The notes under the pieces: generated by a model
What the model saw: the letters and a program-made list of their open reading frames with translations, nothing else
Database searches by the model: none
What the model was told of the DNA's origin: nothing
Shown: positions 31,557 through 34,814 of the stretch, piece after piece
How the letters are laid out: each line of letters opens with the position of its first letter
Position numbering within the stretch: position 1 is the stretch's first letter
DNA from: Geminocystis sp. NIES-3709
GTDB taxonomy: Bacteria; Cyanobacteriota; Cyanobacteriia; Cyanobacteriales; Cyanobacteriaceae
Assembly (NCBI RefSeq): GCF_001548115.1
Contig: NZ_AP014821.1
Coordinates: forward strand, 3,289,262 to 3,353,261
Reading direction: 5' to 3'
DNA length: 64,000 bases
Made by a program: the position numbers and the translations under genes

Positions 31557-31560
31557 TTTT

Positions 31561-31603
31561 TTTCTCACAAAGGCACAAAGTCGCAAAGAAACACACAAAG
31601 AGT
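31561..31603 (-). repeat. Dispersed repeat, inverted copy after the kinase gene
   Basis: The text TTTCTCACAAAGGCACAAAG and TCGCAAAGAAACACACAAAG is the reverse complement form of the CTTTGCG repeat. With 30487-30525 it flanks the kinase gene as an inverted pair. Confidence 0.75.
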
Positions 31604-31780
31604 TTTTAAAATTTAATATTCTTTTATTTCTTTTAACTCGATCGAATTTTCCCTTATTATCTTCATATGTCTATTAACAAATATTACAAATTATCACCTC
31701 ATGATTAAACTTTGCTAGGCTTGATAATAAAGGCTTTAGCCTAAACTCCTCATCTGTTCTTCTTTTCCTCTTTTTAAAAA

Positions 31781-33667
31781 ATGCCTAATATTTTCTCACA
31801 AATTGACTTTAATTCTCTCAAAAATAATCCAGACTTTAAAGAAGATAGCGTCAGAGAAGTGATTATTTTACCTCTTTTAAAAAGTCTCGGTTACACAGAA
31901 AATAATATTATTCGCAGTAAAACTTTACAACATCCTTTCCTCAAAATTGGCAGTAAAAAACGTAAAATTAATTTAATCCCTGATTACCTCTTAAAAATTG
32001 AAAATAATTATGCTTGGGTATTGGATGCCAAAGCACCAAATGAGAATATAAAAGAAGGTGAACACATTGAGCAAGTTTATTGTTATGCTACCCATCCCGA
32101 AGTGAGAAGTCTTTATTTTGCCCTCTCTAATGGGGTTGAATTTAGTTTGTTTAAAACTTCTGGTAATGATACCCCTATTTTATATTTTTCTCTCGATGAA
32201 TTTGATTATTATTATGAGCAATTAAGTCAATTTTTATCTTTAAATAGTTTTCAACTGGGGAAGGCTTTTTCTTATGATGAGGGTGATTTTTTCACGCAAA
32301 GTCGCAAAGACGCAAAGAAGGATGCAAAGGATTTTTTGGTGAGTCAATTTGATTATCTTAATCGTCCTTTATTATCTGAAATTACCGTCAAAAAAAGAGC
32401 GGCTAAAAGACATTTTGGGGTGCATGGTTATTTCACTAAACAAGCATGGAATGTGGTAGCAGAATATATCAAAAATTTTAGTCAACCTCATGATACTATT
32501 CTTGATCCTTTTGGGGGTAGTGGTGTTACTGCTATTGAGGCTTTAATGAATAATAGAAAAGCTGTTAGTATTGATATTAATCCCCTTGCTACTTTTCTGG
32601 TTAATTCTCTCATTTATCCTGTTAATTTTGATGAATTAAATGAGGCTTTTAATAGAATAAAATCTGCTTATCAAAAAAACGAACCTAATACTCCAGAAGA
32701 CATCAAAAAAGCTCTTAAAAAATATCCTTATCCCAAAGATTTTAAACTGCCTAAAGGTTCGGATGTGGACACCATAGAAAAATTATTTAGTAATAAACAA
32801 TTAGCTCAATTAGGTTTTTTAAAATATCTCATTAATAAGGAGAAAAATAAAAATATTAAGGATACTTTAATGTTAATGTTTTCTGGTATTTTGACTAAAG
32901 TAAACTTAACTTATCATAATAACTCAAAAAGACTAGCACCGGGACAAGGTGATACTTCTATTTTCAGATATTATCGCTATAGAATTGCACCCCAACCCAC
33001 AGATTTAGACTTAATGACTTACTTTGAATTAAGACTAAAAAAAGTAATTTCAGCTAAAAAAGAGATGGAATATTTCATCAATGAAAACACCATTTCTAAC
33101 GCTCAAATTGTTAAAGGTACAGCAACAGATTTAAGTTTTATATCTAATGAAAGTATAGATTATATTTACACAGATCTACCCTACGGCAAAAAAATTCCCT
33201 ATTTAGATTTATCGATTATGTGGAATGCTTGGCTAGATTTAGAAGTCACTGAAAATGACTATAATTTAGAAGCAATAGAGGGAGGAGAAAAGCAAAAATC
33301 GAAGGATGAATATAACGAATTAATCGCCCAAAGTATTAAAGAAATGTATCGGGTGTTAAAATTCGATCGATGGTTGTCTTTTGTATTCGCTCATAAAGAT
33401 CCCGAATTTTGGCATTTAATCATCGATACCGCCGAAAGTTGCGGTTTTGAATATAAGGGTGCTGTTGCTCAAAAAAATGGTCAAACTAGCTTCAAAAAAC
33501 GTCAAAATCCTTTCACTGTTTTATCTGGGCAACTAATCATTAATTTTTGTAAAGTTCGTACTCCTAAAGCAATTATGAAGGCTAATTTAGGAATGGATAT
33601 AGCAGAAATTGTCATCCAAACGATCGAGGGAGTAATTGCTAAAAATGATGGAGCTACCCTTGAGTAA
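31781..33667 (+). CDS. Fused nuclease-DNA methyltransferase (HsdR_N + N4/N6 MTase), truncated by a stop
   Basis: Residues 1-130 form an HsdR-N-like PD-(D/E)xK domain with Pro67-Asp68 and Asp82-Ala83-Lys84 (WVLDAKAP). Residues 165-190 contain a translated repeat. Residues 195-620 are a β-class-like DNA methyltransferase with SAM motif DPFGGSG starting at Asp242. Motif IV reads YTDLPYGKKIPYLDLS, so the usual DPPY is DLPY (Leu466, CTA codon at 33176-33178). The gene stops at TAA 33665-33667 in frame with the next coding segment. It resembles a single-chain restriction-modification enzyme that is decaying. Confidence 0.8.
   Translation: MPNIFSQIDFNSLKNNPDFKEDSVREVIILPLLKSLGYTENNIIRSKTLQHPFLKIGSKKRKINLIPDYLLKIENNYAWVLDAKAPNENIKEGEHIEQVYCYATHPEVRSLYFALSNGVEFSLFKTSGNDTPILYFSLDEFDYYYEQLSQFLSLNSFQLGKAFSYDEGDFFTQSRKDAKKDAKDFLVSQFDYLNRPLLSEITVKKRAAKRHFGVHGYFTKQAWNVVAEYIKNFSQPHDTILDPFGGSGVTAIEALMNNRKAVSIDINPLATFLVNSLIYPVNFDELNEAFNRIKSAYQKNEPNTPEDIKKALKKYPYPKDFKLPKGSDVDTIEKLFSNKQLAQLGFLKYLINKEKNKNIKDTLMLMFSGILTKVNLTYHNNSKRLAPGQGDTSIFRYYRYRIAPQPTDLDLMTYFELRLKKVISAKKEMEYFINENTISNAQIVKGTATDLSFISNESIDYIYTDLPYGKKIPYLDLSIMWNAWLDLEVTENDYNLEAIEGGEKQKSKDEYNELIAQSIKEMYRVLKFDRWLSFVFAHKDPEFWHLIIDTAESCGFEYKGAVAQKNGQTSFKKRQNPFTVLSGQLIINFCKVRTPKAIMKANLGMDIAEIVIQTIEGVIAKNDGATLE
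32293..32331 (-). repeat. Dispersed repeat inserted in frame within the methyltransferase gene
   Basis: The stretch CACGCAAAGTCGCAAAGACG then CAAAGAAGGATGCAAAGG is the CAAAG-orientation dispersed repeat. It is read in frame as TQSRKDAKKDAKDF between the nuclease and methyltransferase domains, so it sits in a linker where insertion is tolerated. Confidence 0.85.
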
Positions 33668-34057
33668 ATTAATGATGAATTGATTATCAAAGGTTTAGAA
33701 TTAGGATTTTTAGATTTATTAAAGAAAGAATATTCAGACTTAACACCGATATTATTAGATAATTTTGACTATGATGAAAAAACGGAATTATTTACCATCA
33801 AAAAAGATACTAAATTCAAGTCATATATAGACGTAAAACTGAGAATCAAATATTATTTAATTAGTTATTTAAGAAGAATGGAAAGAGAGAATAAAACTAG
33901 CACTTTTGATGAAATTGTGTTGAATATTTTACCCTTATTAAAAAATGGTACAACCCCCGAAAATCAGACAATTTTAACGGTATTAGAAGATATAGGGGAG
34001 AGACTAGGAGAAAACCATTGGAAATTGAAAGGAGAAGGACAATTAAGTTTATTTTAG
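33668..34057 (+). pseudogene. C-terminal segment of the nuclease-methyltransferase, cut off by a stop
   Basis: This segment continues the reading frame of the preceding gene. After the TAA come INDELIIKGLELGFLDLLKK and finally ENHWKLKGEGQLSLF, with no frameshift. An internal TTG at 33680 could start a separate 125-residue protein, but the spacing lacks a clear ribosome site. Reading the stop as a sense codon would give one protein of about 757 residues. I infer a recent nonsense mutation. A two-polypeptide version remains possible. Confidence 0.75.
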
Positions 34058-34113: not shown

Positions 34114-34170
34114 CATCTCTTTAAATCCTTTTTTTGCGATAGTGAGCGCCTTTGTGAGAGAAAAACAAAA
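34114..34170 (+). repeat. Degenerate CTTTGCG dispersed repeat before the LuxR regulator
   Basis: TTTTTTTGCGATAGTGAGCG followed by CCTTTGTGAGAGAAAAACA resembles the repeat consensus ending in GCGAGA-AAAA. It abuts the ATG of the response regulator, the same placement as the copy before the kinase. Confidence 0.45.
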
Positions 34171-34172
34171 CC

Positions 34173-34814
34173 ATGACAACCTTAAAAATTCTTTTAGTGG
34201 AAGATGACGAATTATTCCGTTTAGGGCTTTCGGTCCGATTACAACAAGAAACAGATTTGCACATCATCGCCGAAGCAGAAGACGGAGAAACCGCCGTTAA
34301 TCTCACTAATCGTCATCCTTTGGATTTAGTTTTACTGGATATAGGATTACCCCGTATGAGCGGTTTAGAAGCCTGTCAAAAAATTAGGTCAAATCACCCC
34401 AAATTACCTATTATTGCCCTTACTTCTCGCTCTGAACCTTCTCTGATTAATCGTTTGATCGAGGTTGGTATTCAAGGTTATTGTCTTAAAGGTGTCCCTG
34501 CTGAAACTTTAATTTTGGCTATTCGCTCTGTGGTTGCTGGTGCTTCATGGTGGGACTCTAACGCTACTCAACAAATTCACACTGCTTTTACTTCTCCCAA
34601 TTCATCAAATCAAGAACTCTTAGACTGTTTAACTAACCGAGAAAAAGAGATTTTACTATTAATGGCAGAAGGTAAAAGTAATCAAGAAATTGCTAATATC
34701 CTCTATATTACTTCTGGTACTGTTAGAGTTCATACTCACACTATTATACAAAAATTGAATGTGAGCGATCGTATATCTGCTATTTTGCTATTTAAGAATA
34801 AATATCATAATTAA
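34173..34814 (+). CDS. NarL/LuxR-family response regulator
   Basis: The 213-residue protein has a receiver domain with Glu10-Asp11-Asp12, phospho-acceptor Asp56 in VLLDIGLPRMSG and Lys in YCLKGVPAETL. A LuxR helix-turn-helix (about 148-210) follows: LTNREKEILLLMAEGKSNQE, TSGTVRVHTHTIIQKLNV. It probably acts with the histidine kinase at 30483, although the nuclease-methyltransferase gene now separates them. Target promoters are unknown. Confidence 0.92.
   Translation: MTTLKILLVEDDELFRLGLSVRLQQETDLHIIAEAEDGETAVNLTNRHPLDLVLLDIGLPRMSGLEACQKIRSNHPKLPIIALTSRSEPSLINRLIEVGIQGYCLKGVPAETLILAIRSVVAGASWWDSNATQQIHTAFTSPNSSNQELLDCLTNREKEILLLMAEGKSNQEIANILYITSGTVRVHTHTIIQKLNVSDRISAILLFKNKYHN

What the first reader, a model, noticed from the sequence alone, without database searches (positions are those of the whole stretch)
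31781..34057. Fused nuclease-methyltransferase split by a single in-frame stop
The 628-residue gene ends at TAA 33665-33667. The same reading frame continues without shift through INDELIIKGLELGFLDLL to GEGQLSLF at 34057. A one-codon change would give one protein of about 757 residues with an HsdR-N-like nuclease domain and a DNA methyltransferase domain. This is either a recent nonsense mutation, or a system working as two polypeptides or by readthrough.
Basis: partly seen in the sequence, partly recalled or inferred. Interest (0 to 1): 0.75.

Follow-up and report, generated by a model that had tools for sequence, protein, structure and literature searches.

The report
Recently broken one-piece restriction-modification gene
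A cyanobacterial gene that in its relatives makes one long DNA-cutting-and-marking protein carries a premature stop here, so it is most likely a freshly broken defence gene and not a new two-part system.

Summary
A 628-codon frame (31781-33667) ends at TAA, and the same frame stays open for 129 more codons. Of 42 long frames in the window only this one does so.

Of 96 homologous tblastn rows (60-88% identity; five at 44-46%), none stops at this column: Gln 88, Asp 5, Glu 2, Lys 1. So the family is single-chain: HsdR_N-like nuclease, flexible linker, DNA methyltransferase, conserved C-terminal domain. The stop lies in a helix near that domain's start. No stop-reading tRNA is among the 42 found, a list that is not complete. 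The tail is still under strong purifying selection, so the stop is recent.

The window copy also has a private P466L change in catalytic motif IV (Pro in 96 of 96 rows). In three of the seven family genomes that hold the gene it is broken, each time differently. I read this as recent inactivation of a mobile, solitary R-M fusion inserted in a two-component operon.

More interesting is the linker: it carries in-frame copies of three different dispersed repeats in different relatives.

The parts
31781..33667 (+). Truncated fused nuclease-methyltransferase gene, 628 codons plus TAA
31781..32254 (+). HsdR_N-like PD-(D/E)XK nuclease domain (residues 1-158; P67-D68 ... D82-A83-K84, Q98xxxY102)
   Evidence: Pfam HSDR_N / HSDR_N_2 in 26 / 27 of 59 members at E 0.01 or better; P67, D68, K84, Q98 and Y102 invariant in the 78-row alignment
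32276..32347 (+). Interdomain linker (residues 166-189) that contains an in-frame copy of a dispersed GCAAAG repeat
   Evidence: 36 repeat hits (29 places) in the own genome against 0 for the reversed control; linker DNA of relatives; pLDDT under 50 at residues 167-187
32369..33562 (+). DNA methyltransferase domain (residues 197-594), motif I DPFGGSG at 242-248
   Evidence: Pfam N6_N4_Mtase 5.8e-16, PADLOC MTase_II 6.8e-39, fold matches over 197-594
33173..33184 (+). Methyltransferase motif IV, DLPY here; private lesion P466L, Pro in 96 of 96 homolog rows
33665..33667 (+). Premature in-frame TAA (column 629)
33668..34057 (+). Remainder of the C-terminal domain after the stop (129 codons plus TAG), still highly conserved
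33599..34054 (+). C-terminal domain (residues 607-758), helical with weakly winged-helix-like halves; cut by the stop at its second helix
30483..31556 (+). Histidine kinase upstream of the insert
   Evidence: HisKA and HATPase_c; next to the response regulator in three relatives
34173..34814 (+). LuxR-type response regulator downstream of the insert
31557..31602 (+). GCAAAG repeat copy at the left edge of the insert; a copy (degenerate in G064) also lies in the empty site of G041 and G064
34146..34165 (-). Inverted copy of the repeat's end at the right edge of the insert

Best explanation
This is a recently inactivated copy of a single-chain restriction-modification enzyme. In intact relatives one polypeptide carries an N-terminal HsdR_N-like PD-(D/E)XK nuclease, a flexible linker, an amino-methyltransferase domain and a conserved helical C-terminal domain. 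Inferred function: it methylates its target site on the host chromosome and cuts unmethylated invading DNA. In the window lineage a nonsense change cuts the chain inside the C-terminal domain, and a second private change alters methyltransferase motif IV. The product is probably inert for both activities. That is a safe way to lose a fused enzyme, because nuclease and methylase fail together (inferred). The gene travels as a solitary unit; here it sits between the two genes of a two-component operon. Shown: the stop, the conservation, the two private lesions, the empty site in relatives and the lack of conserved partners in the loci examined. Inferred: the biochemical activity of the family and the inactivity of this copy.
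For: No stop at column 629 in 96 of 96 homolog rows other than the window's own copy (81 rows from the 80 loci kept, 15; four genomes appear twice); the column is Gln 88, Asp 5, Glu 2, Lys 1. P466 is Pro in 96 of 96 rows and Leu only in the window. The stop falls in predicted helix 627-641, in a well conserved stretch. dN/dS of the tail, window against five relatives, is 0.023-0.086, so it is not decayed. None of the 42 tRNAs found reads a stop. Independent breakage occurs in G064 (stop at column 228) and G172 (only 1-316 and 666-758 found). Kinase and regulator matches end 52-72 bases apart in G041, G064 and G172. No partner gene family recurs across 86 loci. No second full copy was found in the genome.
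Against: No expression, methylome or read data. The truncated chain keeps every nuclease motif and most methyltransferase motifs, so residual activity cannot be excluded. Private amino-acid changes in the window copy are not clearly more frequent than in intact relatives (11 before the stop, against 8 in G041, 13 in G133, 13 in G100 and 17 in G117), so relaxed selection is not shown. The window's total of two departures at near-invariant columns is ordinary (rows range 0 to 14). Only 80 of 150 relatives were kept, and ranking favours full-length matches. The tRNA list is not complete: 150 of 354 candidates were scored, and it lacks a tRNA-Leu with anticodon TAA.
Confidence: 0.83

Rival explanations
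1. The stop (and perhaps the motif IV change) is a sequencing or assembly error, and the gene is intact.
For: No reads were available. The stop is a single codon in an otherwise intact, constrained frame.
Against: No other of 42 long frames in the window is interrupted in this way, so the assembly is not rich in such errors. A second private change hits a residue that is invariant in 96 of 96 rows of the same gene, which two independent errors would explain poorly.
Confidence: 0.08
2. The gene works as two polypeptides: the 628-residue chain plus a C-terminal fragment restarted from TTG 33680.
For: An in-frame TTG lies 15 bases after the stop codon's first base, and the tail remains conserved.
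Against: None of 96 homolog rows is split here. The break lies inside a predicted helix of a continuous domain. By eye no well-placed ribosome-binding site precedes the TTG. The methyltransferase also carries a motif IV change. The tail's conservation is equally expected from a recent stop.
Confidence: 0.05
3. Programmed or suppressor readthrough of the TAA makes full-length enzyme at low level.
For: The frame is open and conserved on both sides. The tRNA list is not complete (150 of 354 candidates scored), so a suppressor could have been missed.
Against: None of the 42 tRNAs found has a stop-reading anticodon. No other frame interrupted in this way is in the window. The 96 homolog rows have a sense codon here.
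Confidence: 0.02
4. The truncated protein has been kept as a stand-alone nuclease-like or regulatory DNA-binding protein (domesticated).
For: Private changes before the stop are mostly synonymous in the window lineage (35 synonymous against 11 replacement).
Against: That ratio is similar to those of intact relatives (36 to 8 in G041, 37 to 17 in G117), so most of it probably predates the stop. A cutter without a working methylase should be harmful (recalled, inference).
Confidence: 0.02

Closest known systems
Type IIC / IIG fused restriction-modification enzymes (TspDTI, TspGWI, MmeI)
   Same: One chain with an N-terminal PD-(D/E)XK domain followed by a methyltransferase and a C-terminal DNA-binding region. 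TspDTI's nuclease domain is also only remotely HSDR_N-like (PMC3384240, passages). Three of 59 N-terminal members also match Pfam MmeI_N weakly (best 0.004).
   Different: Frames of mostly about 740-800 residues against more than 1000 in TspDTI. Motif I and motif IV are about 220 residues apart with a helical insertion, more like E. coli Dam than the gamma class. No biochemically characterised member is known to me (recall).
BREX PglX / PglXI methyltransferases
   Same: The methyltransferase core matches PADLOC PglXI (2.6e-38, residues 329-591).
   Different: No BREX model among nine scanned neighbours in the window and no recurrent partner gene family in 86 loci; it carries an N-terminal nuclease domain instead.
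Rickettsia palindromic elements (RPEs) in protein-coding genes
   Same: Short dispersed repeats inserted in frame in a coding gene at a place the protein tolerates (PMC10969869 and PMC3733652, passages).
   Different: Shorter repeats. Three repeat families occupy one slot of one gene family in cyanobacteria, where RPEs sit in many genes.

Membership tests
Single-chain (Type IIC-like) R-M enzyme | Nuclease and methyltransferase in one polypeptide | tested here: met
   Met by the family: 94 of 98 rows have no in-frame stop; the four are the window copy twice, L085 and L095. Five of the 98 (L095-L099) start at the methyltransferase and lack the N-terminal domain. The window chain itself keeps both catalytic parts but is truncated.
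Single-chain (Type IIC-like) R-M enzyme | PD-(D/E)XK catalytic residues in the N-terminal domain | tested here: met
   D68 and K84 are invariant; residue 82 is Asp in 71 and Glu in 6 of 77. HSDR_N or HSDR_N_2 is found in 26 or 27 of 59 members; the window copy itself scores 22.4 bits, under the 25.1 cut-off.
Type IIG (gamma-class) R-M enzyme | Gamma-class motif order with a C-terminal TRD | tested here: inconclusive
   Motif I precedes motif IV, but with about 220 residues between them and a helical insertion; best Foldseek rows are Dam, best VIA-align rows Trm11/TrmN. The C-terminal domain matches winged-helix folds only weakly (Z up to 7.8).
Type IIG (gamma-class) R-M enzyme | Cleavage at a fixed distance from the site, SAM dependence | not testable with these tools
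   Needs purified enzyme.
Two-subunit system split at residue 628 | Relatives split at this column with a conserved downstream gene | tested here: not met
   0 of 96 homolog rows have a stop here; Pfam finds nothing in the tail alone. 70 of the 150 relatives were not kept and not examined.
BREX | Co-located BREX partner genes | tested here: not met
   None of nine window neighbours matches a BREX model at 1e-10 (the kinase and the regulator were not scanned there); no recurrent partner family in 86 loci, of which 42 are longer than 12 kb.
Programmed readthrough / recoded TAA | Stop-reading tRNA, or recurrent interrupted genes | tested here: inconclusive
   0 of 42 tRNAs, but only 150 of 354 candidates were scored; 1 of 42 long frames in the window interrupted, this one.
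In-frame dispersed repeats (RPE-like) | The repeat is multi-copy in its own genome and lies in frame in a coding gene | tested here: met
   GCAAAG repeat 36 hits at 29 places in G000; CCCTCACC... 54 in G064, 76 in G006, 33 in G023, reversed control 0; CCCCCCTT-AAGGGGGG palindrome 42 sites in G041, 40 in G100, 22 in G064, 11 in G133, reversed control 1 in G041 and 0 in the others; in frame in the linker.

The most novel reading that the evidence does not exclude
The disordered linker between nuclease and methyltransferase is a recurrent landing site for mobile palindromic repeats. At least three unrelated dispersed repeat families have inserted, in frame, at the same slot in different cyanobacterial copies. 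They lengthened the linker from a family median of 12 residues to 16-48, and the enzyme tolerated it. The insert's edges also coincide with copies of one of these repeats, so the same repeats may help to move the whole gene.
Probability: 0.5. Interest if true: 0.42.

Novelty: new member of a known kind. Interest (0 to 1): 0.24.

Why it matters
The split-gene question is settled in favour of an ordinary mutation, which saves others from treating it as a two-subunit or readthrough system. The family itself is worth attention: 60-88% identical to the window copy in records titled as cyanobacteria, Bacteroidota, Planctomycetes, Spirochaetes and other groups (many are metagenome bins), solitary, and without a characterised member that I know of. 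The repeat-tolerant linker shows how small mobile repeats can remodel a working protein. The copies broken in different ways in one family offer a view of how fused R-M genes are lost without harm to the host.

Tried and rejected
Two-subunit and readthrough readings were tested and judged unlikely.

A BREX or other multi-gene context was rejected.

Plasmid carriage: 72 of 72,556 plasmid records match, none covering 80% of the query. Phage carriage: 2 of 50,697 records, weak, no place covering 80%. In viral contigs, 2 full-length relatives at 66-67%, not followed further.

The isolated C-terminal domain model is weak (pTM 0.52). Foldseek gave no match at E 0.001 or better and VIA-align Z up to 7.8, which may be a common arrangement only. 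Pfam gave no convincing family for it: 4 of 63 members match Cullin_Nedd8 at best 0.011, in line with the cullin winged-helix rows but weak. A profile search of the PDB with this domain gave nothing, and with the nuclease domain only weak hits, best an McrBC component at 0.014.

Relaxed selection in the window lineage was looked for and is not shown. A comparison of breakage rates inside and outside the family was not made, because its ranking favours intact full-length matches; 70 of its 150 relatives were not kept.

Literature: searches were seen as listings, and passages were read in PMC3874165, PMC10969869, PMC3384240 and PMC3733652. None described this gene family in the listings or passages seen. 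The motif-class names (other than those in the passages) and the view that a cutter without its methylase is harmful are recalled.

Full report
What is there. The window holds an open frame at 31781-33667 that ends in TAA after 628 codons. The same frame stays open for 129 more codons, to TAG at 34055-34057. This is not chance: the probability of a 129-codon open run at the window's composition is about 4e-5. Among 42 open frames of 200 or more codons, this is the only one followed by 60 or more open same-frame codons (frameshifts are not seen by this control). The genome is placed in the same genus as G117, whose contig of 24,377 bases matches in length that of Geminocystis sp. GBBB08, so the host is probably a Geminocystis.

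What it encodes. The first 158 residues are an HsdR_N-like PD-(D/E)XK domain. Pfam HSDR_N or HSDR_N_2 is found in 26 or 27 of the 59 N-terminal sequences scanned, at best 9e-8; the window copy alone scores 22.4 bits, under the 25.1 cut-off. The motif residues D68, K84, Q98 and Y102 are invariant in the 78-row alignment. Residues 197-594 are a methyltransferase: Pfam N6_N4_Mtase 5.8e-16, PADLOC MTase_II 6.8e-39 and PglXI 2.6e-38. Fold matches are to Dam by Foldseek and to Trm11/TrmN by VIA-align (top five rows: Z 18.0-18.4, rmsd 2.2-3.1, 174-180 residues). Residues 607-758 form a helical C-terminal domain with no convincing Pfam family and no solved relative by sequence. Its two halves resemble winged helices only weakly (Z up to 7.8).

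Relatives. The read-through query found 150 encoding stretches in the genome collection, of which the best 80 were kept. Their record titles include cyanobacteria, Bacteroidota, Planctomycetes, Spirochaetes, Nitrospirae and gammaproteobacteria, at 60-87% identity, nearly all over the full length. Together with the order sample, 98 rows covered 400 or more query residues and 94 of them had no in-frame stop; three shorter rows were left out. The four with stops are the window's own copy seen twice (column 629), L085 from G064 (column 228), and L095 of a subgroup of five at 44-46% identity (column 412). Thus 0 of 96 foreign rows stop at column 629; the residues there are Gln 88, Asp 5, Glu 2 and Lys 1. 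Four genomes are in these rows twice (L003/L086, L004/L093, L005/L087, L008/L089).

How recent. The tail after the stop is still strongly constrained: dN/dS of the window against G041, G064, G117, G100 and G133 is 0.023, 0.028, 0.039, 0.026 and 0.086, at dS of 0.50-0.80. Among those relatives themselves, the six of ten pairs computed give 0 to 0.069. Private replacements are not in clear excess: 11 before and 2 after the stop, against 8 and 0 in G041, 13 and 2 in G100, 13 and 12 in G133, and 17 and 1 in G117. So the stop is young, or selection on the rest has not had time to relax visibly.

A second lesion. Of 243 columns that are at least 95% conserved, the window copy departs at two (C116S, P466L). 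That number is ordinary: the 78 rows range from 0 to 14. But P466 is the first proline of DPPY, methyltransferase motif IV, and is Pro in 96 of 96 foreign rows. With the stop this gives two hits on parts that matter to the methyltransferase half. The order of the two events is not known.

Repeated loss. Twelve of 195 genomes in the order sample hold a copy at 70% identity or more that covers more than 300 query residues. In three of these it is broken, each differently: G000 (this stop), G064 (another stop) and G172, where only residues 1-316 and 666-758 were found. A thirteenth genome, G058, outside the window's family, has only a 61-residue C-terminal piece at 80%. The three lie in the window's family, where 7 of 15 genomes have the gene; G117, whose main copy is intact, also has a second, degraded fragment. 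In G172 the missing middle is replaced by sequence that, by eye, holds an HNH-like frame interrupted by a transposase-like insert.

Mechanism. By established knowledge of fused R-M enzymes (PMC3874165 and PMC3384240, passages), intact members should methylate and cut one target as one chain. The C-terminal domain is on the whole better conserved than the nuclease domain: the mean majority fraction per 40-residue block is 0.71-0.88 for residues 601-758, 0.60-0.77 for residues 1-160 and 0.37 in the linker block 161-200. The stop removes nearly all of it, cutting inside helix 627-641 of the model (mean pLDDT 80.6, pTM 0.78). I infer that both activities fail together. No stop-reading tRNA is among the 42 found, so readthrough has no visible means; but only 150 of 354 tRNA candidates were scored, and the list lacks a tRNA-Leu with anticodon TAA, so it is not complete.

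Mobility. In six relatives, blastn matches over 80 bases to the 64-kb window are confined to 31674-34057 within the 16-18 kb fetched for each; G117's second fragment and G006 also match only inside the gene. The matches to the flanking kinase and regulator end 52-72 bases apart in G041, G064 and G172, which gives the empty site. In G117 they are on different contigs, and G100 and G133 lack both at the threshold used. In 86 loci, 42 of them longer than 12 kb and some of them the same genome twice, no partner gene family recurs: the widest clusters are shadow frames of the gene itself, then an ABC-type ATPase group in 10 loci and smaller ones in 6 or fewer. It is therefore probably a solitary, horizontally moving gene. 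Most of the window's neighbours have ordinary cellular functions by Pfam. The one PADLOC match among nine, mad3, is on an ABC ATPase.

The linker. Residues 167-187 have pLDDT under 50. In the window and G117 this linker is written in a GCAAAG-type repeat, and G172's peptide there is similar; in G041, G100, G133 and G064 it holds a CCCCCCTT-AAGGGGGG palindrome; in G064, L005 and L008 it holds CCCTCACCCC...CTCTCCCA. Each is dispersed in its own genome. The first has 36 hits at 29 places in G000 (up to 2 mismatches; other genomes not counted). The palindrome has 42, 40, 11 and 22 sites in G041, G100, G133 and G064, but only 3, 2 and 2 in G000, G117 and G172. The third has 54, 76 and 33 hits in G064, G006 (L008) and G023 (L005), against 2 in G000 and 10 in G041. 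Reversed-pattern controls gave 0, except one site for the palindrome in G041. The family median linker is 12 residues (n = 78). The six rows of this group in that alignment have 16-48; three other rows also have 16 without a recognised repeat. This is like in-frame palindromic elements known from Rickettsia, but the concentration of several families in one slot of one protein is unusual to me.

Verdict. The best reading is a recent nonsense mutation in a one-chain R-M gene. An assembly error cannot be excluded without reads. As a finding it is fairly ordinary; the linker is the part worth following.

Noticed in passing
32276-32347 and the linkers of L084, L085, L003, L004, L092, L005, L008: Three different dispersed repeat families sit in frame at the same interdomain linker in different copies of the gene.
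   Followed up: partly
31557-31602 and 34146-34165: The inserted gene is bracketed by a GCAAAG repeat copy and an inverted copy of that repeat's end. The empty site in G041 (and, degenerate, in G064) also holds a copy between kinase and regulator, so the repeat may mark or cause the insertion point.
   Followed up: partly
L166 7560-9740 (G172): The middle of the fusion gene is replaced by an HNH-like frame that is itself interrupted by a transposase-like insert with GAGGGGGCGACA ends (read by eye).
   Followed up: no
L095-L099: A 44-46% identical subgroup of five lacks the N-terminal nuclease domain and has about 200 extra C-terminal residues; in the four read (L096-L099) these show a D...ExE-like pattern by eye, and Pfam finds nothing there in the two scanned (L097, L099). 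Perhaps a nuclease moved to the other end.
   Followed up: partly
L056 5001-7217 and 7336-9549: Two tandem full-length copies of the gene in Thiospirillum jenense, possibly duplicated enzymes with different targets.
   Followed up: no
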